Shown here piece after piece: positions 2,239 to 49,118 of a stretch of DNA of 64,000 nucleotides. The number at the start of each line of letters is the position of its first letter. Within the stretch, counting starts at the first letter, position 1. The notes under the pieces are model-generated. The model was not told the DNA's origin. It made no database searches and worked only from the letters and a program-made list of their open reading frames with translations. The translations under genes were made by a program, and so were the position numbers. Source of the stretch: Diphasiastrum complanatum (taxonomy: Eukaryota > Streptophyta > Lycopodiopsida > Lycopodiales > Lycopodiaceae); assembly GCA_029204225.1 (NCBI GenBank), contig CM055098.1, positions 18,259,303 through 18,323,302 of the forward strand, in the 5' to 3' direction.

Positions 2239-3061
2239 TGTTGATTTCACACGTGTGGACTGTCCACAACATGTACTTGTGATATCCTAAGTTGTGTAGA
2301 TGCACCAAGATCAAGACTAGATTGAGATCCAAGATCTATTTTTGATTCTATGGCAAAAACACACTACTACATGCATTCAATCACTTCCAACTCTCACTCA
2401 CACATGTGGAAGTGTTCCAAAAGTAATCTAAGTAGAAATAAGTTGCTCTCCTTGAGTAGAGAAAGAAAATCATCAATAGCTCTCGGGTAGAGAGAGAAAA
2501 CTAGAAAATCACTTACACTCAAAATCCACTCAATCTCAAAATCAATTAGATCCAAATGAGGAGTACAATGATACTAGTAGATCCACGAGCTACCATTATG
2601 CTTAACTATGATTGGAACACACTTTGCCACCTCTTAATCCTATTGGACCATTAATCCATGCACCTCTAAATTCTATTGGACCATTTTCAAGCAAACCTCC
2701 AATTCTATTGGACCACTCATGGTTCCACCTCTAAATTTTATTGGACCTCTTAAACTTCATCAAACAAAAGCATTACACTTGTCTACACTCTAATTTGCAC
2801 AAGTTTGGCCTCCTACTCTATTTTGGCTCAATAGTGGCATTACAAGTGGAAATGGATAATTTGCCATCTATGCCAAATTTGACCCTATCAACATCCTACA
2901 CCTAAATGCTTGACTATGAAATTCTATGAGACCCCTATATAAATTTTTTTTTATTAAGTTTACAATTCTCCACATGTGGGAACATCCTCCACACATGTGA
3001 GATTCACTTACAAACTTCTATCATAAAAAATACCAAGCTAGATTTTTGCCAATTTCTCACA
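2239..3061 (-). repeat. 3' LTR of the element at 2239-7290
   Basis: The LTR starts with TG and ends with CA on the plus strand. The right edge was set at 3061 because the minus strand there has a purine run (TTTTTTGAGGAG) directly followed by TGTGAGAAATTGG, the usual polypurine-tract/LTR boundary and the same arrangement as at 34772-34781. It carries five ATTGG (inverse CCAAT) boxes at 2611, 2642, 2675, 2707 and 2740, and CACATGTG/CACGTG palindromes near 2248, 2400, 2970 and 2990. Confidence 0.85.
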
Positions 3062-3184
3062 CTCCTCAAAAAATAGCTTGGAAAGGTACTAGATCACTTG
3101 AGAAGTTTGTAAATCTTTTTGAGTGGATCCTTTGGTATGCATGAGAGGTGAAGATCAGCCAAGGGATCCATCATAGCAGTACCC

Positions 3185-4870: not shown

Positions 4871-4993
4871 AAGAGAGCCTTCTCCATCACTTGCAATATA
4901 GTCTTCTTTCTCATTGGTGATGTTGGCTTGATTGAGTTGATTTTTCTTCTTGAAGCAATTGGTGGCATAATGGCCTTTCTTGCCATAGTAAAA

Positions 4994-5758
4994 TCACTTG
5001 ATCTTCTTCTTCTTGAGATTTGAATTAGAAGCATGAGAGGTATCCTCCTCCTCTCCATCTTGGTCTTTAGCTTTGTCATTAGAGAAGTGATGATGTTGCT
5101 TCTTACTCCTCTCTTTGTGCTTGGCAAATAGAACTTTGCCATCATCATGATTGAGTGATAGCTTGTCCATCCTCAAGAGTTTGTACTCTTGTCTTGATTC
5201 TTCAAAAATAAGCACACTTTGAAGGGCCTCCAAACTTGGTAGCTCCTCCTTAATGGCATAGGATTGGACAAGGTTGTCATATTCATCTCTCAAGCCATTG
5301 AGAATGACTTGGACTAGTTCACTTTGATTGATTGAGTCACCAATACATGCAAGCTCCCTATGAATATCCTTGACTCTCAAAACATAATTACATGCACTCT
5401 CATCACTCTTTTGGCTACTTTGGAAGATTTGATTTCTAAGAGTGAGGAGCCTAGAGGTGTTCTTAGCCTCATAGATGGACTTGAGACAATCCCAAGCTTC
5501 CTTGGATGTAGAACAATCACCAATCTCCCTCAATATCTCATTAGAGACATTCATCTTAATGTAGTGGAGAGTCATCCTAGCTCTCTTCTTGTATTTTTGT
5601 ACTTCTTGAAGGACTTGAGGCTCCTCCTCAATCCCAAGTACAATGTCCATCACATCTTGGAGTATCAAGATGGACTCTATCCTCAACTTCCATATTGAAT
5701 AATTGGAAGTAGACAATCTCTCGCTTAGTTGCAACAAGTATGAACTCATTGAAGTCAT
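4994..5758 (-). CDS. copia Gag (UBN2-type), ends at an in-frame TGA
   Basis: The 254 residues have the layout of a plant copia Gag: an N-terminal segment with KLRIESIL, then EAWDCLKSIYE, LRNQIF, and VILNGLRDEYDNLV near residue 155. It would form the capsid-like particle. The TGA at 4994-4996 lies in the same frame as the protease-containing reading frame that follows (start at 4870), so the two were once one polyprotein of roughly 850 codons. The stop takes the place of the first Cys of the zinc knuckle; the next codons read FYYGKKGHYATNC, where the second Cys is Tyr. Two of four zinc ligands are thus lost. The Met at 5758 is the first in the frame. Confidence 0.85.
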   Translation of the reverse strand: MTSMSSYLLQLSERLSTSNYSIWKLRIESILILQDVMDIVLGIEEEPQVLQEVQKYKKRARMTLHYIKMNVSNEILREIGDCSTSKEAWDCLKSIYEAKNTSRLLTLRNQIFQSSQKSDESACNYVLRVKDIHRELACIGDSINQSELVQVILNGLRDEYDNLVQSYAIKEELPSLEALQSVLIFEESRQEYKLLRMDKLSLNHDDGKVLFAKHKERSKKQHHHFSNDKAKDQDGEEEDTSHASNSNLKKKKIK

Positions 5759-6502
5759 GGAAAGTGGAGATAAATAAAAGTGATGAACAAAAAATGTTGC
5801 TTCTCTCTCACTATAGGATCCAATAATGGTGTGCTACCATCTCCTATGAAAGATCTTGCAAGAAACTGTGAGATGATTCTCACTAGCTATCTCAATCTCT
5901 CCAAAACTAGATCTACTTCACATCAAATGATGGAGTATAGGCAAAGTTAGGATCAAACCCTCTTAGAACGTGTAAAATACACTAAGAAACCAAATTTGAC
6001 TCAAATACAATGATATTGCAGGAAACAAAATGGCTAAGATCTCAAAATAGTGCCTAGATCACATGTAGATGAGATTGGTAAGCATTCAACTGTGATTTTG
6101 GATCAAACAAGCAATCTCTTGACCAAACCAAATGTGTCCACCCAGGTCTAGGTGCCCTACCTAACCCTCTTCAAAAGCTTAGAACTTTTGATTGCAAGAA
6201 CCAAATGGAATGAAACTGATTGCTTCATAAACTAGACAAAAATAGCTTCAAAACAAGCTATCAAACAAGATAAATGGATCAAGCATGAGAGAGAACTTCC
6301 AAACTGAAATTGGATGTTCCTCACACATGTCTGAGCACCTGATTCCGTACAGTACCAGGTCAGACCCAATCAATGTCCTTTTGATCTCTTTTGATCCAAA
6401 ATTGAACAAGATAGCTAGGAAAATGGACCTTGACAAGTTCTAGCTCAAGATTGATGAATAGTTTTCACTTAAATGGATCAAAATGGATGGTAACCTTAGG
6501 TA

Positions 6503-6515
6503 GGATCTGATACCA
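6503..6515 (-). other. primer-binding site, initiator tRNA-Met type
   Basis: Read on the minus strand, TGGTATCAGATCC follows the terminal CA of the LTR with no spacer. TGGTATCAGA is the standard copia primer site complementary to the 3' end of plant initiator tRNA-Met. It fixes the orientation of the element. Confidence 0.85.
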
Positions 6516-7290
6516 TGTTGATTTCACACTTGTGGACTATCCACAACATGTACTTGTGATCTCCTGAGGTGTGTAGATGCACCAAGATCAAGACTAGATT
6601 GAAATTCAAGATCTATCTTTGATTCTATGGCAAAAACACACTACTACATGCATTCAATCACTTCCAACTCTCACTCACACATGTGGGAAGTGTTCCAAAA
6701 GTAATCTAAGTAGAAACAAGTTGCTCTCCTTGATTAGAGAGAGAAAATCATCAATAGCTCTCGGGTAGAGAGAGAAAACTAGAAAATCACTTACACTCAA
6801 AATCCACTCAATCTCAAAATTGATTAGATCCAAATGAGGATTACAATGATACTAGTAGATCCACGAGCTAACACTATGCTTAACTATGATTGGGCCACAC
6901 TTTGCCACCTCTTAATCCTATTGGACCATTGATCCATGCACCTCTAAATTCTATTGGACCATTTTCAAGCAAACCTCAAATTCTATTGGACCACTTATGG
7001 TTCCACCTCTAAATCCTATTGGACCTCTTAAACTTTATCAAACAAAAGCATTACACTTGTCTACACTCTAATTGGCACAAGTTTGGCCTCCTACTCTATT
7101 TTGGCTCAATAGTGACATTACAAGTGGAAATGGATAATTTGCCATCTATGCCAAATTTGACCCTATTAACATCCTACACCTAAATGCTTGACTATGAAAT
7201 TCTATGAGACCCCTATATCAAACATTTTTATTTACTTTACAATTCTCCACATGTGGGAACATCCTCCACACATGTGAGATTCACTTACAA
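6516..7290 (-). repeat. 5' LTR (truncated) of the element at 2239-7290
   Basis: It matches 2239-3013 closely and starts at the same TGTTGATTTCAC. The match stops at about 7290, so roughly 50 bp of the outer end are lost and replaced by another copia fragment. The ATTGG boxes recur at 6889, 6920, 6953, 6985 and 7018. Confidence 0.85.
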
Positions 7291-7995
7291 ACATGTGAAA
7301 CTTTTCTAGAACATACTCTAGGTATTTTTGCTGGCTAAGATAGATCTTCATATTAGATCTTGACCTAGATCTAGCATAAGGAAGCTTTTTAGACTTTGCA
7401 TAAGATCCGCCAATCTTATTGATGCTAAAAGGAAACTTTGAAAGTTGAGACCAATCTCCTTTTCCATTCCATCCTTTTTGTTAGCCATAACAAAAGCATC
7501 AAGCTTGAAAAGTCTACCTTGTCTATTGCCCCTAGCAACCAAGATTTCTTCCTTTGTAATGAAACAAGCATCACCACCAAACTTTACCATGTATCCTTTC
7601 TCTATCATTTGACCAACACTTAGCAAATTCTTTGAAAGTGAAAGAATGTAAAGAACACCATCAAGTCTTGCTTTCCTATTAGTAGAGAGACAAACAGGAA
7701 TTGAACCAATACCTTCAATCACACACTCACCACCATTGGCCATGTGAATTGCTTTCTTGGCTCCATCATAAGTGACCAAAGAAGTAAAGAACTCCTTGTG
7801 ACTAGTCATGTGTAAACTAGCTCCACTATCAATCCACTATGAATCTTTTTCACCTTCACTTGATATTAGACTTGAATAACACATCAAAAGAGAATCCCCA
7901 CCACCTAGGTCCTCATCATTAGTAGTAAAGTTGATTTTCTTGCTACCTTCATCTCTTTGCCTCTTCAAACATGGGCAAGTGGCATAGATGCCCTT
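7291..7995 (-). pseudogene. copia protease/pre-integrase fragment
   Basis: The minus strand reads a damaged zinc knuckle (KGIYATCPC) near 7970-7990, then a protease site WIDSGASLHMT just left of 7850, preceded by an in-frame TAG. A pre-integrase segment follows (LDGVLYILSLSKNLLSVGQM). The longest open piece is 7348-7809. It is a different copia copy from the element on its left and breaks off against that element's LTR at 7290. On the right it grades at about 7990 into the first exon of the plus-strand gene 2. Confidence 0.75.
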
Positions 7996-8712
7996 CAAAG
8001 GATGCTATCTGAGAGCAGGGCATATGAGGCTAATATGCCGAGTGAGGAGGAGTTTTTGGCTATTCAGAAAAAGTATCTGCCACCTCCCATATATACTATT
8101 CCAGTTGACCAGCAATCCACCATTATTGCTGGTCACAATTTATAAGCTACTGGTGTGATCCAAGCTGACGAGGAGGATTTGGTAAGTACACCTTCTCACA
8201 AAAATCATTTACTATTTAAAGTGTAACTGATGATTGATCTGCTAGTTTGACTAACACTTGATTATGTGTTGTAGGAAATCGTTGAAACTGATGCCTTTGC
8301 TAGTAGGCATGGAGGATTGAGAGAGAGACCAGGCGGGAGACAGAAGGATGCTTCATTGGATCATTATTTGAAACATTTTGTAAATAAAGAAATTTGTATT
8401 CTTCATGAAAGGTTTTTTGTGAATGCAGGAACCTTAATCATGGCCATCAAGGCCCTATCTTATTTTGCCCAAGGGCATAAATATCCAAAAAATACATATA
8501 GAATCATTTTTGTCAAAAGAGATGTTGCTCTTAAAGTGTTCAATTACGTGCCAGAAAATGTTCCTATGAGATCATCTACTCTGGCAATTCTATCAGGATA
8601 TATAGATCTGAGCAAAAGGCGATCCACTCAATTTTTGGATCCGTATGGTAGGAAAAAGTTCCTTCATGGCCACACAGCAAAAATTGTCCTTAGAGACAAT
8701 GAAAAAAAATGA
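7995..8712 (+). CDS. gene 2 of the convergent pair (lineage 1), orphan small protein
   Basis: It has two exons. Exon 1 runs from about 7995 to 8181 (SEEEFLAIQKKYLPPP) and has one in-frame TAA near 8144. A clear donor GTAAGT (8182) and acceptor TTGTAG (ends 8274) bound a 93-bp intron. Exon 2 is 8275-8712: ASLDHYLKHFVNKEICIL, then KALSYFAQGHKYP, IIFVKRDV, NVPMRSST and LDPYGRKKFLHGHTA. The same protein, at roughly half identity by eye, is encoded downstream of and convergent to gene 1 at 26697-27134 and 48024-48461, with the same acceptor. I do not recognise the family. It shows no signal peptide, membrane segment or catalytic signature, is mostly mixed alpha/beta in character, and has a charged tail. 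The start lies at or before a break with copia sequence and is unknown. Confidence 0.6.
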
Positions 8713-8793
8713 TTGTACTCTTTTCCATTTAATGTATGTGAAATTTGAGAATTTTTGATCACACGCGTTTGATCTTTATTGAATGCCATCAAC

Positions 8794-11442
8794 CTAATTT
8801 TGGCTTATAAATTTACATGCTTTTTTGAATCTTTGATATTCAGTTGATCTTGTTGTGTATCGAACTTGAGCTCGTCTATAAAACCATTGGAATAGCTGAA
8901 TGATGTAACTATTTTTTGAGGATGTCCCACCATGTTGTGTATTTCGATGAAATGCTGCTCTTGCCTGCCAATGTGATTTCTCCATTCCTTTTGAGGACCA
9001 TATACTCAAACTGCCATACTTTTTTGCAAAAAATGAAGCATGATGCCTTAGTATGTGCTGCAATATCAAAGATTTATGCATTGGTTAGAATCTATCAAGC
9101 AAGTTATACTAAAATCATAAAATTGTAAGACATTGTTCAGATGTATCTTACCATGTAGTGGGTGATGTGATCTGAGCCCCAAGCCACCCGAACTGCTCTA
9201 CAAACTGTATTGCTGTTTTCTCCAATAGGAGTGCATCTGCATATGAAATTGTGTCTTTTCTAAGCACTTCAATCATATTATCGGGCTTTTTCCAAACTTC
9301 AACCTTCCTTACCCTTGTTGTTCCTTTATCTTCAAAGTCTTCTGTTGCAGAAATAACATCTTTCCAAATCGAGCATTGGACCTTAGACGACTCTTTAGAA
9401 TGATTTGATAAAAATCGATGAGCTTTGACTCCTCCTATGCTAGGTTTATTGGGTACGTTTCCTATTTTTCCCGAAAGCTTTTAATCTTTTTGTATTTTAA
9501 CATGGCCTTTATGAAGGCCTGCTTTTGACAACACTTCCTCTAATCGAGCGATTGTTTGTTTTGATGCTGACTCTGGCATAGTATTCCATGCAAACAAGAT
9601 ATGAAGATATATTAATTTCTCTATGATCCTCACCTCTCCATGAAGTGTGCAAATATGCACATTTTGTAAAGGAATTGGTAGTACTGGTTTCCAGTTGGGA
9701 TCTTCAATATCTCTTGAAACTCTTGTGTTCCTTGGAATGTCATTTGATGATTTCATAGAATATAGACATGGATGTTTCAATTTGCTCCATGAGATACATT
9801 GAACATGCATTTGAATGACTTCAAGTCTCTAGCTAAATGCCATTCCACAAAAAATTCACCTCTTTCAGGAACACTAAGTATTTTGCCATTCATATGATCC
9901 TTTATGATATCTCGATAACATGTTTTGCTACAAATTCTGGAAAAAACATCGTGATCCTCCTTGATAACTTGTTCAACATATGGAATCACAAGTTTTTATA
10001 TATTCAAAACAATTACCAAAAGAAATTGCACATGAATAACAGCCACTTTTTACTTGAAAACATGCTAGCCACCATATGTTGTTTTCTGATTGCACACTGA
10101 AGTTGAGATCCCTTGAGTTTGTTGCATTGCTCAATGCTCCATTCACGAGAGTAATACTTACTCTTTCCAACTTTTGTCCTTTTATAACTTCCGATTCATC
10201 TAGCTTGACCACCATAATAAGTTTGCTTATACTAACACTAGTAATATTATAGCACTTCACTATAAATCTCAATAAATGATTCAAATCCACAAATAAGTTG
10301 TTGGTAGAATTATATGACAAACTGCCAGACTTTGAATTGTAAATCTCATTGATGCGAAAAGAGATTCCAATGACATTTTGCATACCCTTATTCAATACAT
10401 CTCTCTCCAATCTTATCTGAAAAGGGCGAGGAATGGAAAATTTTCTTACATGCAATTGTCCAAAAGCCTCTTTGATTATTTTAAATATACTGGCATATGC
10501 CTCCCTGCTAATACCTGAGAAATCACATGCTCTTTGAATTAACGTTCGGTCGATAACCTTACCGACCTCGTTCATCAAAGCCTCAGTGACCTTGGAGTTG
10601 ATTCAGATTATCGTCCAATAAAGACTTTGTGGACTTGGTTGTCAATACCGAACTCAGTGATTTTCTGATCAGGTCATTGTCCTTCAGATGCTCATTTGCA
10701 ACCAATGCTGATCTGCAAATGATTATGAAAATCAAGAAACCGAGATAGGACACATAATAAATGTCATGCTACTTCACAAAACTAAAATAAAACTGATTCA
10801 AATCAAATCCTTACTTGAATGCTTGAATCTTTTTTCTCCGTTGGCCTCCATTCAGCTAAAGCTCATCAATGTCCTTCATAATTCTTTTTTGCTTGTTGCT
10901 TATTAATTTCTTATCTAGTATGCGAGTTTCTTCTTTTAACTGGTCATTTGATATACATAATGTTTGAACAACTTGTCGGAATTGATCATTACTTGCATTC
11001 AAATTTAACATAATATTATGTAAACGTGCATTATCTTCTTTTGTTTGTAATAATGCGGTCTCTTTTTCTCTATAGTTAGCAAGCAAACCATTAACATACA
11101 TTCTAAACTTTGTATTTTCTGAACCGAGTTTGCAACACCATAAGTCGTCAATCTTTCAAAACAACCCAGTAAACCGTTTTCTCCATCACACAAAAACTTT
11201 ATAAATTGTGTGATGGATTGGAATTGTGGAGCTTGCATCGAGCTCGGATCCAAAGGATACAAACTTCCGTCAATCCACAAATCATAATTCTTTCTTTGGT
11301 TGATTCTGTGAGCGATCATATCAAGTGGATAACTGTGGATTCTTTCACTACTACTCTTTTAGCTATCAGAGCATTCTCGGTAGGGAGAACAATGTGTAGA
11401 TGAAACTGAGACATCTCTACAAACATCAGATGATGGACCAAA
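8794..11442 (-). pseudogene. gene 1 of the convergent pair (lineage 1), DDE-transposase-like, four exons
   Basis: The exons, in minus-strand order, are 11442-10815, 10712-10054, 9968-9152 and 9057-8794. Exon 1 has an N-terminal QFHLHIVLP segment, then YDLWIDGSLYPLDPSS and a coiled coil ending KQKRIMKDI. Exon 2 has QRACDFSGISREAYASIFK, LFVDLNHLLRF and the first candidate acidic residue in KLDESEV. Exon 3 has EWHLARDLKSFKCMFNVSHG with the second Asp, then KHPCLYS, where the array copies have CLYC. Exon 4 has SSKGMEKSHWQARAAFHRN with the candidate Glu. Donors GTAAGG and GTAAG are intact; the exon 3 acceptor has AA where AG is expected. Frames break near 11330, 11130, 10590, 9780 and 9470, so this copy is dead. 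It faces gene 2 tail to tail across 81 bp. The DDE assignment is inference from motifs. Confidence 0.65.
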
Positions 11443-11740
11443 AAAAAAATAGACACTATTCTTCATCCATGGCGTACTTGAGATTCTATGTTTATTCTCT
11501 CGCTAGTTAAAATGAGGGACACAATCTCATTTTCAAATTTGAAAAATTTAGTTAATGAGCATCATAGGTTCGTGAAGTCGTAGTTGCATGTGTCATAATC
11601 GTGTCATGTTAATTACACATTACTAGTAAGGTAAGCTAAATTGGACCTGAAAGTCTATCGAAGTTTTAAAATTTGACATTTTTTTTGGTCCTACGTGGCA
11701 TTTCTTAGACGGCCCTTTTGATGTTTGTAACTCCTCTAAT
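11443..11740. other. spacer with no recognisable gene
   Basis: This AT-rich sequence lies upstream of gene 1 and presumably holds its promoter. I see no repeat match elsewhere in the window and no reading frame of interest. Confidence 0.5.
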
Positions 11741-12006
11741 GTGAAATTTGCATTTGTGTGGCACTGTCAATTACCCTCGAAAGTTGCCATGCATGGCAAA
11801 ATTTTAAAAAGAGTGCCATGCATGGAAAAATTTGCCACACATTGCAAATTTTACTATGGAAATTCCTTTGCAAATTTTTCAATGGTGTGGAAATAAAAAA
11901 GTGTACATATTTGCATCTTCTTAAAAAGGGAGTCATGCTAACACCAGGCTTTCCTACTTTTGTGAATTAAAAAAATACATTAAATCTAAGAAGAATTAAA
12001 AGCTTC
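11741..12006. repeat. palindrome-rich end of a family G element
   Basis: The stretch has TTGCCATGCATGGCAA, a perfect 16-bp palindrome at about 11785-11800, and a near copy at about 11815-11830. Both lie downstream of the family G gene. Similar sequence lies at 59200-59330. The right part (11897 onward, AAAAAAGTGTACATATTTGC) recurs in block X copies near 19216, 28422, 38949 and 60036. Confidence 0.6.
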
Positions 12007-14539: not shown

Positions 14540-17075
14540 TGAATTAAGCACTTATGCTAATAAGCAGTAAGCGCAATAGCAAAACTCTAAATTATTTCTA
14601 AAGAAATGAGCTAGATGCTCAAGAGTGTTTATGCTCACAGGCTTGAGAGAGATGCTAACTATGCTTCAAAGACATTATTATGATAGAAGTATATTTATAC
14701 TAAGCAATGAGAGAGAGAGAGAGAGAGAGAGTGAGTCTCCTGAGTGGATCCGAATACAAAGGAAATGGTCTTCTTTTATACAAAGAAATGGTGGGTTTAA
14801 TCTTTTGCTCCCCATTGGCCATTTTATTTTTACTTGGATCACAATGTCAACCGTTAAGGTTATTTAAATTTGTGTTTCTTGAGGTTGAATTGTGTTTCTT
14901 GAAAAGTACAAGTTTAACAAATTTATTTGAGTAGATTTAAAAGCTTGTGAAGTGTAGGTTGACAGAACTTATTTAGTTCATTTGTGCCCATGACACTTCC
15001 TAGCCTAATTAGGCCTCCAAGTTGGCCTTACACTTGCAGAATGCTAGCTACATTGAGGGCGATACAATGGCCCTTCAAAAACAAAAGAGGATTGGAAGTG
15101 TGGCTCCTAAGAGCCCTTTCGTAGGAGAAGGGCCTTGGAAGTTGATCGCACCCACCCTCCCCCCCCCCCAAAAAAAAAAAGAACAAAGTAAATGAACAAG
15201 TCCTTTTTTCTCATCTCTTGTTAAATAATATCCTTGTTATGTTAGTCTCATGTTGGCATTTTACTTCATATGTTTGACTTGGATTATATCATGCAAAACA
15301 CAACATTCGTGTGGAATTATGGACTTTTTGTGCAATACAACTTGCTTTATGAAAAAGGACAGTGTATTATCTTTTGTGAAAGGGCATAAAAAAGGTTATG
15401 AAACTTTGAAGTCAAAAGTAATTTATAGCTCATAACAATGTTCACTAAAAAATTTGTGATAGTACATTACATCCGTAAAAAAAACCAAAATGTATTTTTT
15501 ATTAAAAAAAAATTCAGCAGCAAAGTAAAATGTCTAAGGATCCTTTATGTTTGAAAAACATTTTTTTAACATAATTATGGCTCTATGATAGTTTTGAGAT
15601 TGCAAAGCTCTTAAGAAAAAAATCATTCTCCAAAACAAAGCCATACCATGATTAATATAACTCTCCTCCAACTTCCATTAATAATAGCTTCTTTGATTCC
15701 CAAAATAGGTACTATCGTCCTTCCTAAATGTACCTCCAGCAAAGCGCATGTCAGTCTCCGAGTCAAAAAAGCACTCAAGATAATACATGCATATGACTGC
15801 AAAAATGGAGCAAAAAATGCCATCCAGGTACATCCCCCCTCTCTCTCTGAAATAAGTCACAGACCATTCTAGAATGTTCTTTACTTTTTGACAAACTGAA
15901 GGGGCATCTGCCGGTCACTTGAAACGCTAAAACGCGTTAACTCCATATCACATACATTTCCAATCTCGAATCTCACTCAGTCTCAGTAACTTTCGTTCAG
16001 AATTTCAGACACACTCATCTCTTGAAAGATCTAACTATATGCTCTCCATCTCTAACATCTATTTGTATTTCAATTTTTCAGGCTTCGAAACTGAGGCCGC
16101 AAAGCTTTTTTCGGGCAATGCAACCAAATAGATCCCCTACTACACAATATAATACTAGACATATATCCCTTAGTGGGCGCACTATATATGTCTTTCTGGA
16201 CGAATCAAGAGAGCAAAGGTGAGAAGATGCTATAGCCCCGTTTAATATGTATCTGTCTTGGAGTGTTCTGTTCCGCCTGCAATGGCAAATTTCTCGCTTT
16301 CATTTCCCTTGCAGGCCACTGATCACTTGGGGGGAAGCGGTTCTGCTTTCAGTACAGCAGTGTAGGACCCGATGGAGGTAACGGTTTGACGGTCATTGAA
16401 CAGGAAACAATGCAGAACTGACGTTGAGGGACTACTGGCATCTTCTCCGATCCTCCAGTAGATTACAGTGATGCTGCTATATATAGACTCTGATGGAATT
16501 TCAGTGCCTGTTCATCGCTGCGTTTTAGCATCTCGCAAGCAGCGTTTTCTCCACGCCTGCCACTGAAGCGGTCCTTTACCCGAGAAAAGTAAGGAAGCTT
16601 TGTCCTCTAAGCACGAATTTGATATAAATCGGCTCGTTACTTCCGGGAGGAGTGGATGCAAGCCATTAATGATTGCATTACGCTATTTTTATGGTGGCTT
16701 ACTCAAGGGAGTCAACGAAGCTTGCTCTGTGTCTTGCATGGATGCATTGTGTTCGCATATCTGCCGTTGGCATGCATGTTCGTCCTTCTAAGGCGTCTCC
16801 TCAGATCTTTTCATGGCCGAAATGTCAACTAAATTTTGCAGTCTTCTCCAAACTAACTTGCCCGAGAAAATAGCTTATTCAGTGTGTCTTTCTTTCCTAA
16901 GCACTCTCTCGATTTTGGTTGTAATTTTTGTTATCTGCTTATCAAATGACCGGTTTCCCTCGTCTTCATCTTCAAGATTGTAAATCTTGCCAGTTTCTGA
17001 TAGCCTCCAATACTTTATCATATCGCTCTAAATTAGCAGAGTATGAACAGTTTGGACGAGATATTAAGGTATAGA
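14540..17075 (+). repeat. copia LTR remnant plus block X, unit 1 of the composite array
   Basis: From about 14540 the sequence matches 49611 onward, first across the copia LTR with its GA tract and then across a long non-coding stretch here called block X. There is a C-run/A-run at 15160-15180. Relative to the copy at 49.8-52.7 kb this one lacks about 376 bp near 16155 and has about 75 extra bp near 16430-16500. The right part (16541-17075) is the best preserved and recurs near 27503, 37973 and 51958. Short open frames here are not conserved as protein, so I regard block X as non-coding. Confidence 0.7.
14709..14731. repeat. GA microsatellite in the copia LTR
   Basis: About eleven GA units lie at the same LTR position where the paralogues carry about 30 bp (37943) and 103 bp (49741). 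Confidence 0.95.
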
Positions 17076-17091
17076 TTAATTCTTTGGACAG

Positions 17092-18277
17092 GTGCTGAAA
17101 GAGGATCATGATATATTATCATGGATATTCTCAAGGACATCTTATCCTAGGATCATCAAGGACCATATGGATGGAGGACTTCTCAATGTTGCAGGAGTTG
17201 GAGACTTCAATGTCGAATGGCACTTAGCAAGTGATTTGAAAACATTGAAATGTATGTATAATGTCTCTCACGGTGCTACATCAAAACACCCTTGTTTATA
17301 TTGCATGAAAATGGCAAAAGATGTAAATAGGAGTACAGGAATTACTAGAGAATATGTAGATCCAAACTGGAAGCCTGTGTTGCATATCCCCTTAAAAAAT
17401 GTGCATGTTTGCACTCTTCATGCAAAAGTTAGATTAATAGAAAAGATCATTTATCTTCATATAGTTTTTGCTTGGAATACTAAGCCAGCATCATTAGCAA
17501 AGGAAGCTATCTCTCGATTAGAAGATCTTTTATCAAAAGCAGAACTTCATAAAGGACATGTCAAAATTCAAAAAGATGAAAAGCTTCCATGAGCTTTCAA
17601 AGAATGGGAACATCCCAACTAAGCCAAGCATTGGACGAGCAAAAGCACATTGTTTCCTATCAAATCATACTGGTAAGGCTTCTAATATTCAACACTCAGT
17701 CTGGACAGATATTATTGCTACCACTCAGGACTTCGAGAAAGACGGCAAAACCAGAGTACTAAAAGTTGATGTATGGAAAAAGCTTGATAGTATGATTGCT
17801 ATTTTAAGAAAAGAAAAATACTTTGATATTGATAAGAAAGCTATCCAAAGGACTTGTGTTGAGTTTCTTAATGCAGTATCAAAAGCATGGGGAGAAGATC
17901 ACATCACTCATTACATGGTTAGTATAAAATTTTCAAAATGCTTTCAAATTTTCATATATATTTAGATCCAAACATAAGACTAACATTACGATTTTCACAT
18001 ATGCAACACATACTAAGAGATCATACAACATTTTTTGCAAATACATATGGAAGCTTGAGTGTATGGTCATCACAGGGGATGGAGAAGTCACATTGGCAAG
18101 CACGAGCAGCATTTCATCGAAATACACAACACGGAGGAACCAATGAAAAACAACTACATTTGTCAATTGTTTCAGTTGTTCTATCGTAGAGTTCAGATTC
18201 AACATGTAACAAAGTCCACACAATACAACAAGTTTAGAAAAGCATGCAAGTTCATACAGGAAGAGAAAGTTAGATGA
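17092..18277 (+). pseudogene. gene 1 fragment (exons 3-4)
   Basis: Exon 3 is 17092-17917 and starts after the intact acceptor TTTGGACAG. It keeps EWHLASDLKTLKCMYNVSHG and KHPCLYC (second Asp, CxxC). A short internal duplication near 17585 shifts the frame. Exon 4 starts at 18007 and holds SSQGMEKSHWQARAAFHRN; a short deletion near 18150 shifts the frame again. The acceptor before exon 4 reads GCAA rather than GCAG, as in the other array copies. Exons 1 and 2 are absent. Confidence 0.75.
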
Positions 18278-18411
18278 TTGCTGAGTAGAAGATCATCATT
18301 GTCATCGAATCATGACATGTTCAGAATTGCTTTGCAAATTTATTGAACAAGAGAGGAGAAATACTCAATGTAAATGTATTGATTGTATTATACCAAAATA
18401 CAAAGTGTAAA

Positions 18412-18580
18412 CTATTCATCATCAGATCTTGTGTCAGATTCTATGGCAGTAATGTCATGAAGAAATTCTCTGCTAGCATATGCATCTAATAGATGTGCAT
18501 TATCCTTATTTTCACTAAGCTTAATATAAGTGGAATACAATGAATAATGGGAGCTCCTTAAAGGAACATTCCTTTAAATA
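18412..18580 (-). pseudogene. gene 2 fragment (3' end)
   Basis: The last 55 or so codons of gene 2, ending at the stop at 18412-18414, include AHLLDAYASREF and ESDTRSDDE. The upstream side is cut at the joint with block X. It is convergent to the gene 1 fragment, as in the full copies. Confidence 0.7.
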
Positions 18581-22964: not shown

Positions 22965-23900
22965 ATGACGGCACCCATAAACGCCACCACCCCGATGCCA
23001 TTCGCACCTCAGCAAAGTGCGAATCCTGGCATTTTCTTGCGACAATCTGTTGGCGATTTCCTTGCTACTGTGTTCGATCCTGACGCTTTGTTGTTCAGTA
23101 CTTTTTTCATCGTCTCCACACCATCTCTGCAGACTATCAACCATCCTCGTTTGCATACCATTGAGAGCGCCATCACCAAACACCTTCAAACCTAACATCG
23201 CCGACAGACAACACATCATCTTGCAGTTTTTTGCATGCAAAGGGGTAGTGTCACGCGAGCATTCACCAAGCTCCCGTTACACTATTGACTATACTATCAT
23301 CAACATCACAAAACTTGTATTTACCTACCATTTCATTTCCCACAGATATCCACCTTCACCTCATCTCCATTCTTGACCAACATCTCCACATTAGAGGAGT
23401 TCTCAATATCAAAAATACCCTTTTAGGAATGCCATGTAGGATATAGAAAAATATCAAAATAAAAAAAACAATATTGTTTATTTGCTTGCCCACACCACTC
23501 CCAAGGCCTCCCCAACTCCCAATGATCTAACCATAGTGTCTATAGTCACAGTTAAGAACTGTTAACAGTTTGCAGTATAGCTTGACTAAATTCAAAAATA
23601 TTCCCTCCATTGGTTACAAAAAGGGCAATATTTTCAATGGATCTAGAATATGACCGCCATCCCCAAATTCCAATCAGGAAAAATTGCAAAATGTTTACAT
23701 ATGCATTCCTTCCACGAGAATGGAAATATGAGTGCCAACTACCTATTGGAATGAAAAAATGAGCGACATTTCCAAATTTGAATCAAGCATACAAGCATGG
23801 AGATTGGATTCATCGTACATAGTATATCATATAATCAAAGATGAGTATTTTGTTTTGCTTCATAGAATTTGGTCATAGTACTTTGATGCAACTGATTACT
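22965..23900 (+). other. spacer upstream of gene 1 with two weakly protein-like stretches
   Basis: One 76-codon frame (22965-23195: FAPQQSANPGIFLRQSVGDF) corresponds to 44303-44533. A second stretch near 23640-23815 corresponds to 44948-45154, which reads REWKYERQLPIAIKATFPN; here it is broken by a short insertion near 23757. The second could be an extra 5' exon of gene 1 or part of a third gene. The evidence is only that the two array copies agree, and they are recent duplicates. Confidence 0.35.
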
Positions 23901-23911
23901 CTATTATTTTT

Positions 23912-26562
23912 TTGATGATGACAATGTATCATCTACATGTGGATATCCCTATTGATTTGGCACCTTTGCAGAGAAGAGGAGGCAAAGAAATTCAAATAGT
24001 TGCTGAGAATCGTTCTCGTTACAGTGCAGAAGGAAAAAAAAAACTTGGATTTGTGGATAGATGGAACATTATACCCACAAGATCCAAGCACTTTGACACA
24101 TCCCACATTCTCTTCAATAACTCATTTAGTTACATGGATATGCAACGGGCATAGTGGATTACTAGGATATTGCGAAAGATTGCAGAACCATGGAAAACAA
24201 CTTTATATGAATAAAGTTCATTTTTTAGAAGGTGAGTTGATTTGGATATCCTCTTATTGTCAGAATAGAGATTGTCATCTCCAAAAGACGTTAGAAGAAA
24301 ATGAACAACTTAAAAAAATTAATGAATCATTAGAGAAGATAACAATCAATATCAAATCAGAACTAGAGCAAATGCAATCAGTCTTACAGTCTATTCGTAT
24401 TGAAAACTTACAATTATTGAAGGATGTGGATTTGACAAAGAAGAAGGCTGAAACTAAGAAGCAAAAGCGACAAAGTTGCAAGGATATTCAAACACTTTCA
24501 AAAGGAGGTTATTGAAATAGAAGGATCTATGTATGCAAGTAAGCATATTCTGATTTCTGTAAGTTTTTCAATGACATTTGGATTTAATTTCAGCTATGGT
24601 GATATTCTGTAAACTATCTGTTTTTTTTGCAGATCTGCATTAGTAGCTCCTCAGAATATTAAAGACAATGCTTCACTACGAATGTCATTGGGCACAATAT
24701 TGACTTGCAAATCCACGGAGCGTATCATGATGAACAATAGGATTTCAAATATAAAGTGTAAATTAGCAGAGTCTTTGATGGTGGACATTAAAAAAAAATT
24801 TGATAAGACTATAGTTCGAGGTGCTTGTGATTTTGCAGGTATTAGCAGGAAAGCATATGCAACAATATTTAAACTAATTAGAGAAGCTTTTAAGCAAGTT
24901 CAAATTAGAAAAATCCCAATCCCTAGGACATATCACTTGAAAAAAGAGAGAGATACATTAAACATAGGTATGCATAAGATCACTGGAAGTCCATTTCATA
25001 TTGAGGAGGTGTAAGAAACTGATGGAAGATCGATATTCTATAATTCATCAAACGATTTATTTGTTGATCTAAATTACTTGCTGAGATACATCGTCACATT
25101 CTATGATATAACCTATGAAAAGGTGAATGGCAAAATAATCATAGTACTTAAGTTAGATGAGTCAGAAATTGTTTGGGCAGAAGATGGAGAGGGTTAGTAT
25201 AACTCTCATGAATGGAGCTCTATCACAAACAGAGAACCAAGAAGATTTCAAATTCAGTGTCCAAGTAGAAAATGATATATGGTGGCTGGCAGCGTTTCAG
25301 GTAACTAGCCTCATTATTACATTACATTCATTGAATAGTATCAATACATTGTAAACTAAGTCTGATTAATTCTTTGGACAGGTGTTGAAAGAGGATCATG
25401 ATATATTATCATGGATGTTCTCAAGGACATCTTCTCCTAGGATCATCAAGGACCATATGGATGGAGGACTTCTCAATGTTGCAGGAGTTGGAGACTTCAA
25501 TGTCGAATGGCACTTAGCAAGTGATTTGAAAACATTGAAATGTATGTATAATGTCTCTCATGGTGCTACATCAAAACACCCTTGTTTGTACTGCATGAAA
25601 ATGGCAAAAGATGTAAATAGGAGTACAGGAAGTACTAGAGAATATGCAGACCCAAACTGGAAGCCTGTGTTGCCTATCCCCTTAAAAAATGTGCATGTTT
25701 GCACTCTTCATGCAGAAGTTAGATCAATAGAAAAGATCATTTATCTTCATATAGTTTTTGCTTGGAATACTAAGCCAGCATCATTAGCAAAGGAAGCTAT
25801 CTCTCGATTACAAGATGTTTTATCAAAAGCAATACTCCATAAAGGACATGTCAAAATTCAAAAAGATGAAAAGATTTCAGGAAAGAATGGGAACATGCCA
25901 ACTAAGCCAAGCATTGGAGGAGCAAAAGCACGTCGTTTCCTATCAAATCATACTGGTAAGTCTTCTGATATTCAACACTCAGTCTGGACAGATATTATTG
26001 CTACCACTCAGGACTTCGAGAAAGACGGCAAAACTAGAGTACTAAAAGTTGATGTATGAAAAAAGCTTGATAGTATGATTGTTATTTTAAGAAAAGAAAA
26101 ATACCTTGATATTGATAAGAAAGCTGTCCAAAGGACTTGTGTTGAGTTTGTTAATGCAGTATCAAAAGCATGGGGAGAAGATCACATCACTCATTACATG
26201 GTTAGTATAAAATTTTCAAAATGCTTTCAAATTTTCATATATATTTAGATCCAAACATAAGACTAACATTATGATTTTGACATATGCAACACATACTAAG
26301 AGATCATACAGCATTTTTTGCAAATATATATGGAAGCTTGAGTGTATGGTCATCACAGGGGATGGAGAAGTCACACTGGCAAGCACGACCAGCATTTCAT
26401 CGAAATACACAACACGGAGGAACCAATGAAAAAGAAAACTACATTTGTCAATTGTTTCAGTGGTTCTATCGTAGAGTTCAGATTCAACATATAACAAAGT
26501 CCACACAATACAACAAGTTTAGAAAAGCATGCAAGTTCATACAGGAAGAGAAAGTTAGATGA
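23912..26562 (+). pseudogene. gene 1 of the convergent pair (array lineage, unit 1), DDE-transposase-like
   Basis: The exons are about 23912-24538, 24633-25300, 25382-26200 and 26290-26562. Exon 1: YHLHVDIP, LDLWIDGTLYPQDPSTLTHP and a coiled coil of about 90 residues ending KKQKRQSCKDIQ; an A10 run at 24034-24043 shifts the frame. Exon 2: RGACDFAGISRKAYATIFK, a TAA at 25012, LFVDLNYLLRYIV and KLDESEIV (first candidate Asp, 25156), then a shift. Exon 3: EWHLASDLKTLKCMYNVSHG (Asp at 25523), KHPCLYC (Cys at 25583 and 25592), then a TGA at 26057 where sister copies have Trp. Exon 4: SSQGMEKSHWQARPAFHRN (Glu at 26362). Donors GTAAGC, GTAACT and GTTAGT are normal; the last acceptor is GCAA. It is a DDE-like nuclease by inference. 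This copy cannot be expressed intact. Confidence 0.7.
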
Positions 26563-26696
26563 TTGCTGAGTAGAAGATCATCATTGTCATCGAATCATGA
26601 CATGTTCAGAATTGCTTTGCAAATTTATTGAACAAGAGAGGAGAAATACTCAATGTAAATGTATTGATTGTATTATACCATAATACAAAGTGTGAA

Positions 26697-27134
26697 CTAT
26701 TCATCATCAGATCTTGTGTCAGATTCTGGGGCAGTATTGTCATGAAAAAATTCTCTGCTAGCATATGCATCTAATAGATGTGCATTATCCTTATTTCCAC
26801 CAAGCTTAATATAAGTGGAATACAATGAATAATGGGAGCTCCTTAAAGGAACATTCCCATCAGTAAAGCCTAAAATATTCAAAACATAAGATCTTTTTAC
26901 AAAAATGATCTTATTTGTTTTAACGAATTGATGTCCTCCTAGATAAAATGATAAAGCTTTAACTACCATTGTAAAACTCTCCCTGACTGGGCTCAACTTG
27001 GAATGAGCAATACATATCTCATCCTTCAGGAAATGCCTATGATAGTGGCCCAATCCACTGTCCCTCTAGAACGAGGATGCGTGTTCTCTGAAACCAGCTC
27101 GTCTCGCAGCAAAATCATCTATTATGAGAGCATC
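26697..27134 (-). pseudogene. gene 2 of the convergent pair (array lineage, unit 1), exon 2
   Basis: The exon starts after acceptor TTGTAG and reads DDFAARRAGFREH, a TAG near 27065, then GHYHRHFLKDEICIAHSK, KALSFYLGGHQF, IIFVKRSYVLNILGF, GNVPLRSS, AHLLDAYASREFFHDN and a DDE-rich tail. It aligns end to end with 8275-8712. Exon 1 is missing: upstream of a 77-bp intron with donor GTAAGT the sequence is copia gag. It converges on gene 1 with 134 bp between stop codons. Function is unknown. Confidence 0.65.
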
Positions 27135-27218
27135 CTACAATAGAAAATATGTTAGCAAAAACACATTCAGTGATTAAAAACATTCTAATGCAAGGAAGTT
27201 TTAACACTTACACATGTT

Positions 27219-44302: not shown

Positions 44303-45243
44303 ATGACGGCACCCATAAATGCCACCACCCTGACGCCATTTGCACCTCAGCAAAGTGCAAATTCTAGCATTTTCTTACGACAATCTGCTGGCGATTTTCT
44401 TGCTATTGTGTCTGATCCTGACGCTCTGTTGTTTAGTACTTTTGTCATCGTCTCCACACCATCTCCGCCAACTATCAACCATCATCGTTTGCATACCATT
44501 GAGAGCGCCATCACCAAACATCTTCAATCCTAACATCGCCGGCAGACAACACATCATCTTGCAATTTTTTGCATGCAAAGGGGTAGTGTCACACGAGCAT
44601 TCACCAAGCTCCCGTTACACTATTGACTATACTATCATCAACATCATAAAACTTGTATTTACCTCCCAGTTCATTTCCCACAGATATCCACCTTCACCTC
44701 ATCTCCATTCTTGACCAACATCTCCACATTAGAGGAGTTCTCAATATGGAAAAGACCCTTTAAGGAATGCCATGTACGATATAGAAAAATATCAAAATAA
44801 AAAAAACAATATTGTTTATTTGCTTGCCCACACCACTCCCAAGGCCTTCCCAACTCCCAATGATCTAACCATAGTGTCTATAGTCACATTTAAGAACTGT
44901 TAACAGTTTGCAGTATAACTTGACTAAATTCAAAAATATTCCCTCCATTGGTTACGAAAAGGGCAATAAGTTTAATGGATCTAGAATATGACCGCCATCC
45001 CCAAATTCGAATCAGGAAAAATTGCAAAATGTTTACATATGCATTCCTTCCACGAGAATGGAAATATGAGCGCCAACTACCTATTGCAATAAAAGCGACA
45101 TTTCCAAATTTGAATCAAGCATACAAGCATGTAGATTGGATTGATCGTACATAGTATATAATATAATCAAAGATGAGTATTTTGTTTTGCTTCATAGAAT
45201 CTGGTCATAGTACTTTGATGCAACTGATTACTCTATTATTTTT
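44303..45243 (+). other. spacer upstream of gene 1 with protein-like stretches
   Basis: The frame 44303-44533 matches 22965-23195. The stretch 44948-45154 reads YDRHPQIRIRKNCKMFTYAF and REWKYERQLPIAIKATFPN, richer in aromatic and basic residues than chance AT-rich sequence would give. It may be an exon. Nothing else recognised. Confidence 0.35.
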
Positions 45244-47889
45244 TTGATGATGACAATGTATCATCTACATGTGGATATCCCTATTGATTTGGCACCTTTG
45301 CAGAGAAGAGGAGGCAAAGGAATTCAAATATTTGCTGAGAATCGTTCTCGTTACAGTGTAGAAGGAAAAAAAAAACTTGGATTTGTGGATAGATGGAACA
45401 TTATATCCACAAGATCCAAGCACTTTGACACATCCCACATTCTCTTCAATAACTCATTTAGTTACATGGATATGCAACGGGCATAGTGGATTACTAGAAT
45501 ATTGTGAAAGATTGCAGAACCATGGAAAACAACTTTATATGAATAAAATTCATTTTTTAGAAGGTGAGTTGATTCGGATATCCTCTTATTGTCAGAATAG
45601 AGATTGTCATTTCCAAAAGACGTTAGAAGAAGATGAACAACTTAAAAAAAATAATGAATCATTACAAAAGCTAACAATCAATATCAAATCAGAACTAGAG
45701 CAAATGCAATCAATCTTACAGTCTATTCGTATTGAAAACTTACAATTATTGAAGGATGTGGATTTGGCAAATCAGAAGGCTGAAAGTAAGAAGCAAAAGC
45801 GACAAAGTTGCAAGGATATTCAAACGCTTTCAAAAGGAGGTTATCGAAATAGAAGGATCCGTGTATTCAAGTAAGCATATTCTGACTTTTGTAAGTTTTT
45901 CAATGACATTTGGATTTAATTTCAGCTATGATGATATTCTGTTATCTGTTTTTTTTGCAGATCTGCATTAGTAGCTCCTCGGAATATTAAAGACAATGCT
46001 TCACTACGAATGTCATTGGGCACAATATTGACTGCAAATCCATGGAGCGTATCATGAGGAACAATAGGATTTCAAATGTAAAGTGTAAATTAGCAGAGTC
46101 TTTGATGGTGGACATTAAAAAAAAAATAGATAAGACTATAGTTCAAGGTGCTTGTGATTTTGCAGGTATTAGAAGGAAAGCATATGTAACAATATTTAAA
46201 CTAATTAGAGAAGCTTTTAAGCAAGTTCAAATTAGAAAAGTCCCAATCCCTAGGACATATCACTTGAAAAAAGAGAGAGATACATTAAACATAGGTATGC
46301 ATAAGATCACTGGAAGTCCATTTCATATTGAGGAGGTGTAAGAAACTGATGGAAGATCGATATTCTATAATTCATCAAACGATTTATTTGTTGATCTAAA
46401 TTACTTGCTGAGATACATCGTCACATTCTATGATATAACCTATGAAAAGGTGAATGGCAAAATAATCATAGTACTTAAGTTAGATGAGTCCGAAATTGTT
46501 TGGGCAGAAGATGGAGAGGGTTAGTATAACTCTCATGAATGGAGCTCTATCACAAACAGAGAACCAAGAAGATTTCAAATTCAGTGTCCAGTTAGAAAAT
46601 GATATATGGTGGCTGGCAGCGTTTCAGGTAACTAGCCTCATTATTACATTACATTCATTGAATAGTATCAATACATTGTAAACTAAGTCTGATTAATTCT
46701 TTGGACAGGTGTTGAAAGAGGATCATGATATATTATCATGGATGTTCTCAAGGACATCTTATCCTAGGATTATCAAGGACCATATGGATGGAGGACTTTT
46801 CAATACTGCAGGAGTTGGAGACTTCAATGTTGAATGGCACTTAGCAGGTGATTTGAAAACATTGAAATGTATGTATAATGTCTCTCACAGTGCTACATCA
46901 AAACACCCTTGTTTGTACTGCATGAAAATGGCAAAAGATGTAAATAGGAGTACAGGAATTACTAGAGAATATGCAGATCCAAACTGGAAGCTTGTGCTGT
47001 CTATCCCCTTAAAAAATGTGCATGTTTGCACTCTTCATGCAGAAATTAGATTAATAGAAAAGATCATTTATCTTCATATAGTTTTTGCTTGGAATACTAA
47101 GCCAGCATCATTAGAAAAGGAAGCTATCTCTCCATTAGAAGATGTTTTATCAAAAGCAAGACTCCATAAAGGACATGTCAAAATTCAAAAAGATGAAAAG
47201 CTTTCAGGAAAGAATGGGAACATGCCAACTAAGCCAAGCATTGGACGAGCAAAAGCACATCGTTTCCTATCAAATCATACTGGTAAGGCTTCTAATAATC
47301 AACACTCAGTCTGGACAGATATTATTGCTACCACTCAGGACTTTGAGAAAGACGCCAAAACCAGAGTACTAAAAGTTGATGTATGGAAAAAGCTTGATAG
47401 TATGATTGCTATTTTAAGAAAAGAAAAATACTTTGATATTGATAAGAAAGCTGTCCAAAGGACTTGTGTTGAGTTTGTTAATGCAGTATCAAAAGCATGG
47501 GGAGAAGATCACATCACTCATTACATGGTTAGTATAAAATTTTCAAAATGCTTTCAAATTTTCATATATATTTAGATCCAAACATAAGACTAACATTATG
47601 ATTTTGACATATGCAACACATACTAAGAGATCATACAGCATTTTTTGCAAATATATATGGAAGCTTGAGTGTATGGTCATCACAGGGGATGGAGAAGTCA
47701 CACTGGCAAGCACGACCAGCATTTCATCGAAATACACAACACGGAGGAACCAATGAAAAAGAAAACTACATTTGTCAATTGTTTCAGTGGTTCTATCGTA
47801 GAGTTCAGATTCAACATATAACAAAGTCCACACAATACAACAAGTTTAGAAAAGCATGCAAGTTCATACAGGAAGAGAAAGTTAGATGA
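45244..47889 (+). pseudogene. gene 1 of the convergent pair (array lineage, unit 3), DDE-transposase-like
   Basis: The exons are about 45244-45870, 45961-46627, 46709-47527 and 47617-47889. It is nearly identical to the unit 1 copy and shares its A10 shift (45366-45375), TAA in exon 2 (46339) and GCAA acceptor before exon 4. Exon 2 also lost one base near 46032, giving a new shift. Exon 1 here reads on to RNRRIRVFK at the donor. Exon 3 is open throughout its 273 codons, with WHLAGDLKTLKCMYNVSH, KHPCLYC and AVSKAWGEDHITHYM. Exon 4 has SSQGMEKSHWQARPAF. This is the best copy for reading the C-terminal half. Confidence 0.7.
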
Positions 47890-48023
47890 TTGCTAAGTAG
47901 AAGATCATCATTGTCATCGAATCATGACATGTTCAGAATTGCGTTGCAAACTCATTGAACAAGAGAGGATAAATACTCAATGTAAATGTATTGATTGTAT
48001 TATACCATAATACAAAGTGTGAA

Positions 48024-48461
48024 CTATTTATCATCAGATCTTGTGTCAGATTCTATGGCAGTATTGTCATGAAAAAATTCTCTGCTAGCATATGCATCTA
48101 ATAGATGTGCATTATTCTTATTTCCACTAAGCTTAATATAAGTGGAATACAATGAATAATGGGAGCTCCTTAAAGGAACATTCCCATCAGTAAAGCCTAA
48201 AATATTCAAAACATAAGATCTTTTGACAAAAATGATCCTATTTGTTTTAACAAATTTATGTCCTCCTAGGTAAAATGATAAAGCTTTAACTACCATTGTA
48301 AAACTCTCCCCGACTGGGCTCAACTTGGAATGAGCAATACAGATCTCATCCTTCAGAAAATGCCTAAGATAGTGGCCCAGTTCACTGTCCCTCTAGAACG
48401 AGGATGCGTGTTGTCTGAAACCAGCTCGTCTCGAAGCAAGATCATCTATTATGAGAGCATC
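48024..48461 (-). pseudogene. gene 2 of the convergent pair (array lineage, unit 3), exon 2
   Basis: It starts after TTGTAG at 48461 and ends at 48024. It reads DDLASRRAGF-type, a TAG, HFLKDEICIAHSK, KALSFYLGGHKF, RIIFVKRSYV, GNVPLRSS and AHLLDAYASREFFHDN. As in unit 1, exon 1 has been replaced by copia gag beyond the intron. Confidence 0.65.
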
Positions 48462-48540
48462 CTACAATAGGAAATATGTTAGCAAAAACACATTTAGTGA
48501 TTAAAAACATTCTAAAACAAGGAATTTTTAACACTTACAC

Positions 48541-49118
48541 ATGTTCTCATATGTAGAGGGCAGGCTTGAAAGCAATGTCATAATTGCATCTTGATCGTCT
48601 ATGACTGATTCGACAACGACCATCTGTTGCAAGAGATTCTTGAATTGGTTAATATGATTGTGAAGAGAATCATTGTTTGACATCTTGAGTATGAAGAATC
48701 TCCTTCGAAGATGCAACTCGGTACTTACGTCTCTCACATCATATAGTGAGCTCATGATGTCTTCTTTCGAAGTTTTAGCTTTAGCTATGTGGCCAATTTG
48801 AGTATTTGATATATTCAGAATAATAAACACGAAAGTTTTACCATCCTTCGCTTTCCACTTTGAGTCGACTTCGTCGTCTTCAGGCTTCGCTTCGATACCT
48901 ATAACAACATCCCACAACTCATTGGCAATTAGCAAGGTCTTCATCTTAAATTTCCATAAATGATAATTGGATCCATTCAGCTTGTCTGCGATAAGACCGG
49001 CTTTACTTTGAGAATCCATCTGGAACTTTAGACTATCAATAATTCGATTGTCATTAAGAGAAAGATATAGTGTTGTGCTACAATCGGAAATCAATTCTCT
49101 GATACCAAAATAAATCAA
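48541..49118 (-). pseudogene. copia gag (5' two-thirds)
   Basis: The minus strand from 49118 reads GSNYHLWKFKMKTLL, DVVIGIEAKPED, LRRRFFILKMSNNDSLHNH and AIMTLLSSLPSTYEN as one open frame of about 190 codons, then runs into the gene 2 intron at ENMCKC. The primer-binding site (49188-49199, TGGTATCAGAGC on minus) and LTR follow to the right. It is the most intact gag of this copia family in the window. Confidence 0.85.

What the first reader, a model, noticed from the sequence alone, without database searches (positions are those of the whole stretch)
7995..11442. A convergent two-gene mobile element of unrecognised type
Gene 1 (four exons) and gene 2 (two exons) lie tail to tail here and again at 23912-27134 and 45244-48461. 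The two lineages differ widely in DNA, yet the proteins align along their length and order and orientation are the same. A multi-exon DDE-like gene plus an obligate orphan partner does not match any plant transposon family I know (hAT, CACTA, MULE, PIF, Helitron).
Basis: partly seen in the sequence, partly recalled or inferred. Interest (0 to 1): 0.9.

Follow-up and report, generated by a model that had tools for sequence, protein, structure and literature searches.

The report
RAG1-like plant transposon carrying a histone
In what looks like a clubmoss genome, a very abundant jumping gene whose cutting enzyme resembles the antibody-gene enzyme RAG1 inserts without the usual duplicated target bases and carries its own version of the DNA-packaging protein histone H3.

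Summary
The gene pair is real but is only the left part of a larger element. Three complete copies elsewhere in the same genome are 8.1-9.4 kb with identical 35-bp terminal inverted repeats. The exact 22-bp terminus occurs 709+728 times, reversed control 0+0. Insertion duplicated no target bases at the two sites that could be tested. Right of the pair lie gene 3, a histone H3-fold protein (Pfam Histone E 1.6e-26), and gene 4. Another lineage also carries an H3-like gene: 58 of 145 gene-1 places have one within 12 kb, 56 convergent, 51 of these at 3.9-4.3 kb; chance 0.3. Gene 1 keeps D, D and HxxxxH...E with the RAG1 spacing at the last motifs; its profile beats 500 of 500 shuffles against RAG1, but hhalign probability is only 7.7% and family and PDB searches stay sub-threshold or empty. 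It fails the RAG-like/Transib hallmarks (TIR starting CAC, 5-bp duplication). Two of the three window pairs are one insertion duplicated; all are truncated. Best reading: a new group of TIR transposon with a RAG1-type core and an H3 gene; the histone's role is inferred.

The parts
7971..11741 (-). E1: right-truncated element copy, lineage E1
   Evidence: terminus and truncation
11707..11741 (-). left terminal inverted repeat of E1 (CATTAGAGGAGTTACAAACATCAAAAGGG...)
10815..11319 (-). gene 1 exon 1 of E1 (WIDGxLYPxDPS, then coiled-coil-like; frameshifted)
10054..10712 (-). gene 1 exon 2 of E1 (first Asp, KLDE; one frameshift)
9152..9968 (-). gene 1 exon 3 of E1 (second Asp, DLK; frameshifts and a stop)
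8794..9057 (-). gene 1 exon 4 of E1 (HILRHH ... GME, open)
7971..8181 (+). gene 2, exon cut off at its 5' side by copia (one stop)
8275..8712 (+). gene 2, last exon of E1, open to its stop
23389..27215 (+). E2: right-truncated copy, lineage E3 type, same insertion as E3
44727..48542 (+). E3: right-truncated copy, lineage E3 type
46709..47527 (+). gene 1 exon 3 of E3 (open; second Asp and CxxC)
17074..18572 (+). E4: internal fragment of a copy (gene 1 exons 3-4 and part of gene 2)

Best explanation
The window holds truncated copies of a large, high-copy DNA transposon. Complete copies are 8.1-9.4 kb with 35-bp TIRs and carry, left to right, gene 1 (rightward), gene 2 (leftward), gene 3 (rightward) and gene 4 (leftward). 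Shown: termini, gene order, dispersal, insertion without target duplication at two sites, a histone H3 fold in gene 3, and protein-level constraint between lineages. Inferred: gene 1 is the transposase, with an RNase-H/DDE core of the RAG1 type; it would bind the TIRs, cut both ends and join them to the two target strands at the same position, so no bases are duplicated. Inferred and less certain: gene 3 helps the element in chromatin. Its product starts like H3 and keeps lysine 4, but position 9, the place of the silencing H3K9 methyl mark, is Asp in one lineage and Ala in another, so nucleosomes built with it could not carry that mark. Genes 2 and 4 would be DNA-binding or assembly partners.
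Against: RAG1 kinship is weak by search: hhalign probability 7.7%; Pfam RAG1 below cut-off in 4 of 22 members (best 0.054), while irrelevant families appear too, one at 0.002 in 2 of 22; PDB profile searches did not return RAG1; end-gap-free global alignment no better than shuffles (79 of 200). CxxC is CxxS in the lineage-C copy and in window E1. TIR start and target duplication differ from RAG-like elements. Gene 3: 8 of the 11 long gene-3 readings share a TAG after SLFF; within that lineage dN/dS is 0.45-1.16. Gene 1 exon 3 against lineage C gives pN/pS 0.56-0.57 with saturated silent sites. No H3-like gene linked to the E1 lineage (0 of 150; capped lists). No expression or activity data.
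Confidence: 0.66

Rival explanations
1. Gene 3 is a centromere-type H3 (CENH3-like) that ties the element to centromeric chromatin, either to steer insertion there or to use its state.
For: 28 of 100 listed termini, all on contig C1, fall in 1.8 of 101.6 Mb.
Against: Identity is highest to ordinary H3 (47 of 85) rather than plant CENH3 (41 and 44 of 85). Whether C1:64.9-66.7 Mb is a centromere was not testable; the listing covered C1 only.
Confidence: 0.25
2. Gene 3 is passive cargo: an H3 gene captured by the element and carried along without function for it.
For: 8 of 11 long gene-3 readings share a TAG, so copies spread with a broken gene 3; within the lineage dN/dS is 0.45-1.16.
Against: An H3-like gene occurs in three sublineages, in fixed arrangement in one, with pN/pS 0.35-0.44 between lineages; 112 of the 150 best lineage-C matches have no stop in the matched part (my count).
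Confidence: 0.25
3. Gene 1 is a DDE transposase of another or undescribed group with a similar Cys/His insert; the RAG1 likeness at the last motif is convergence.
For: hhalign aligns only about 50 residues with confidence; Pfam and PDB support is sub-threshold or absent; TIR and target duplication are not RAG-like.
Against: No other transposase family appeared in the Pfam scans of gene 1 pieces; order and spacing of several motifs follow RAG1.
Confidence: 0.4
4. Genes 1-4 are not one element: a two-gene transposon and an H3-carrying repeat merely often lie side by side.
For: Two listed places have the H3 part inverted (C1 and C729); most listed H3-like hits lie away from listed gene-1 hits (lists capped).
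Against: Three copies run from TIR to TIR through all four genes; fixed spacing in lineage C.
Confidence: 0.05

Closest known systems
RAGL / ProtoRAG transposons (RAG1L + RAG2L)
   Same: Convergent genes between TIRs (PMC7204232 passages); gene 1 keeps D, D, HxxxxH and E with RAG1 spacing at the last motifs
   Different: No Kelch/RAG2-like gene found; TIR begins CATTAG, not CAC; no 5-bp duplication; a histone H3 gene instead; plant host (inferred)
Transib transposons
   Same: RAG1-type core is shared with Transib by recalled family relation
   Different: TIR and duplication as above; several genes and introns here; no Transib sequence was aligned (6pqn appeared only as a RAG1 relative)
Spy transposons (PHIS superfamily)
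   Same: DDE transposon without target-site duplication (PMC4482050 passages)
   Different: Spy inserts within AAATTT; the flanks read here show no such motif; no PHIS-type transposase model matched
Fungal DNA transposons with TET/JBP genes
   Same: DNA transposon carrying a chromatin-related gene (PMC12730594; only the start of the abstract seen)
   Different: Cargo is an enzyme on methylcytosine, not a histone

Membership tests
RAGL / ProtoRAG | RAG1-like DDE core | tested here: inconclusive
   hhalign E 0.0045, probability 7.7%, 0 of 500 shuffles; Pfam RAG1 in 4 of 22, below cut-off; PDB searches no RAG1
RAGL / ProtoRAG | RAG2-like (Kelch) partner gene | tested here: not met
   pieces of genes 2, 3, 4: no Kelch family in Pfam; gene 3 is a histone
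RAGL / ProtoRAG | TIR beginning CAC | tested here: not met
   CATTAG in both lineages whose termini were read
RAGL / ProtoRAG and Transib | 5-bp target-site duplication | tested here: not met
   0 bp at 2 of 2 empty sites; of 7 complete copies none has a 5-bp repeat, one has a 3-bp and one a 1-bp match
Transib | alignable Transib transposase | not tested
   no Transib sequence was aligned
Spy / PHIS | no target-site duplication | tested here: met
Spy / PHIS | insertion within AAATTT | tested here: not met
   flanks
hAT, CACTA, MULE, PIF, Helitron | family transposase or helicase domain | tested here: not met
   no such Pfam model for the pieces scanned, up to E 1 or 10
Histone H3 | H3 histone fold | tested here: met
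   PF00125 1.6e-26; H3 chains in the PDB, best 3.2e-21
CENH3 | longer loop 1 | tested here: inconclusive
   one residue longer than H3, LIPRAPF, but closest by identity to H3 (comparison letters recalled)
CENH3 | centromere localisation | not testable with these tools
   needs ChIP or imaging

The most novel reading that the evidence does not exclude
A RAG1-kin transposon group thrives in a seedless plant, joins its ends to target DNA with zero stagger, and encodes its own H3 variant that cannot be methylated at position 9, so that it packages itself in chromatin the host cannot silence.
Probability: 0.25. Interest if true: 0.97.

Novelty: new variant of a known kind. Interest (0 to 1): 0.87.

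Why it matters
RAG1-type transposons gave rise to antibody gene recombination and the paper seen here reports them from animals (PMC7204232 passages). A RAG1-like plant element would widen that history. A transposon that keeps a histone H3 gene across divergent lineages would suggest that mobile elements can fight silencing at the level of the nucleosome, which becomes directly testable by expressing gene 3. Joining without target duplication by a RAG1-like enzyme would also be mechanistically unusual.

Tried and rejected
Two-gene element of 3.4 kb: rejected, copies continue past gene 2 to a right TIR. The 7971 junction as the element's natural end: rejected, L036 and L037 continue gene 2 there. 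Relatives in viral and prokaryote contigs: none confirmed. A 1939-codon open frame at an H3-like hit: the neighbouring stretch fetched reads N throughout, so I take the frame for an artefact. E1 lineage and H3-like genes: 0 of 150 and 0 of 150, undecided because lists are capped. Global alignment with RAG1: no signal. Pfam hits of gene 1 exon 4 to RAG1 (1 of 3; the lineage-C piece) first looked strong; 4 of 22 with other families alongside showed them to be weak. For one search I kept 145 of the 150 rows listed (300 matches in all) and dropped five rows that match only the later part of the query; four belong to genes already kept, one (C7:11830053) does not.

Full report
What was claimed and what is there. 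The window lies in a 1.74-Gb genome (G000, contig C7). From its size, some 23-24 contigs with megabase coordinates in the listings, and its LTR elements I take it to be a lycophyte such as Diphasiastrum complanatum; this is recalled, not tested, and one paper search did not help. Gene 1 and gene 2 are convergent in E1 (7971-11741), E2 (23389-27215) and E3 (44727-48542); E4 (17074-18572) is a fragment. E2 and E3 have identical flanks on both sides and belong to one duplicated block of 6.4 kb at 95% identity. E1 is a separate lineage, 68% in DNA. Gene 1 has four exons.

Termini and extent. I fetched 20 copies (about 9.9 kb each) found with E3 exon 3. For 11 of them I printed the left boundary: all break at CATTAGAGGAG; the flanks differ, except that L010 shares the flank of window E3. 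The copies do not end at 48542, where the window copies stop. The right TIR was found in L042. Three copies could be read from TIR to TIR: 9384, 9335 and 8091 bp, with 35-bp termini identical at both ends. The E1 lineage has the related left terminus CATTAGAGGAGTTACAAACATCAAAAGGG; 117 forward and 123 reverse places with at most one mismatch in 26 bases, control 0 and 0. The exact 22-bp E3-type terminus occurs 709 times forward and 728 reverse, control 0 and 0; a degenerate form 766 and 759, control 0 and 0.

Target sites. Seven complete elements had both flanks read. None has a repeat of 5 bp; one has a 3-bp match (TCA), one a 1-bp match, five nothing. Of the seven joined flanks, two found an empty site in the DNA I held. 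The first, from an insertion in a copia pol gene, aligns ungapped to the window's copia (99 columns); sent to the whole genome it matches 40 of 40 scored sites at 94-97%, 39 with no change of length and one 3 bases longer. The second aligns ungapped over 199 columns to a gypsy copy in the window; a poorer second match has one 10-base gap away from the junction. So at both sites insertion added and removed nothing. No target motif was apparent.

Gene content. To the right of gene 2 lie gene 3 and gene 4. Gene 3 begins MDRRKQTRRDFFS, contains a histone H3 fold (Pfam Histone 1.6e-26; PDB H3 3.2e-21) and a C-terminal extension of about 200 residues. 14 of the 20 fetched copies have it, whole or in part. 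Of 134 listed gene-1 hits, 25 have one of 150 listed H3-like hits within 12 kb, 23 on the same strand and two inverted (both lists capped). Pieces of genes 2 and 4 match no Pfam family above its cut-off. Gene 2 keeps a C-x2-C-x3-C stretch in two lineages.

Divergent lineages. Inside the fetched stretches lie pieces of other lineages: L012b with gene 1 and gene 2 in the same order; L011a with gene 3 followed by gene 4 in the same order (its histone begins MARTKSTAHA); L023b (lineage C) with gene 1 and an H3-like gene. Lineage C gives 300 matches, 150 listed, many in open frames up to 767 codons, and at least 150 H3-like places, 112 of which have no stop in the matched part by my count (best-scoring matches, so biased to intact ones). 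Of 145 gene-1 places, 58 have an H3-like place within 12 kb, 56 of them convergent downstream, 51 of those at 3897-4262 bp; chance expectation 0.3. In lineage C the histone gene is thus itself convergent with gene 1. A third H3 sublineage also has at least 150 places.

Selection. E3 against E1 type, gene 1 exon 3: dN/dS 0.105 (272 codons) and 0.119 (269). Against lineage C the silent sites are saturated and pN/pS is 0.56-0.57 for that exon. Gene 4 between two lineages: 0.149 and 0.181 (173 codons), silent changes near saturation. Gene 2: pN/pS 0.345 (76 codons). Gene 3: pN/pS 0.35-0.44 with saturated silent sites, 78-80 codons. Within the E3 type, gene 3 gives 0.45-1.16 and one gene 4 pair 2.3, as expected for decaying copies. 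Of 11 long gene-3 readings, 8 share a TAG after SLFF; L014 has Glu there, and two (L022, L028) are out of frame at that place. One search lists many copies without stops.

How it may work. Gene 1 would cut at the TIRs and join both ends to the target with no stagger. Gene 3 would be built into nucleosomes. Counting from the start, H3 lysine 4 is kept; lysine 9 is Asp in 10 of 10 copies whose start my pattern found (the pattern fixed residues before it, not position 9) and Ala in the one copy read of another lineage. The anti-silencing role is inference.

Known families and print. RAG-like transposons have convergent genes, TIRs starting CAC and 5-bp duplications (PMC7204232, abstract and passages). 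Spy elements lack duplications but insert within AAATTT (PMC4482050, passages). Paper searches for transposon-borne histones, plant Transib/RAG elements, duplication-free DDE elements and new plant superfamilies listed nothing like this (listings only). That is absence in those searches of open-licence papers, not proof of novelty.

Noticed in passing
G000 C1:64.9-66.7 Mb: 28 of the 100 listed exact termini (all on contig C1, 101.6 Mb) fall in 1.8 Mb; possible centromere or insertion hot spot.
   Followed up: partly
window 2239-7292: Copia element on the minus strand with LTR-like ends 2239-3015 and 6516-7292 (95.5% alike); a related stretch, reversed, stands at 41683-42419, exactly at the break between two otherwise continuous duplicated blocks.
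   Followed up: partly
window 14531-52701: Large, partly tandem duplicated units (gypsy pol, copia pieces and the element copies), mostly above 90% identity.
   Followed up: partly
G000 C1:49901532-49905275 and C1:50386284-50390026: Two pairs of outward-facing termini with almost equal spacing (3722 and 3721 bp), perhaps a duplicated segment between two elements.
   Followed up: no
L017 (C1:28592004-28601870) and C729: H3-like gene (and, in L017, gene 4) inverted relative to gene 1: a rearranged form seen twice.
   Followed up: partly
gene 3 of fetched copies, e.g. L020 8143-9126: A shared in-frame TAG after SLFF in 8 of 11 long readings, although copies without it exist.
   Followed up: partly
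G000 C1:66476150-66476660: An H3-like hit with a 1939-codon open frame; the neighbouring stretch reads N throughout, so the frame is taken for an artefact.
   Followed up: yes
L056 240-300: The lineage-C copy lacks the intron between exons 2 and 3 that the window lineages have.
   Followed up: no
window 46628-46708 and 47528-47616: E2 and E3 have GCAA where E1 has the acceptor GCAG before exon 4, so the window's E3-type copies may not splice there.
   Followed up: partly
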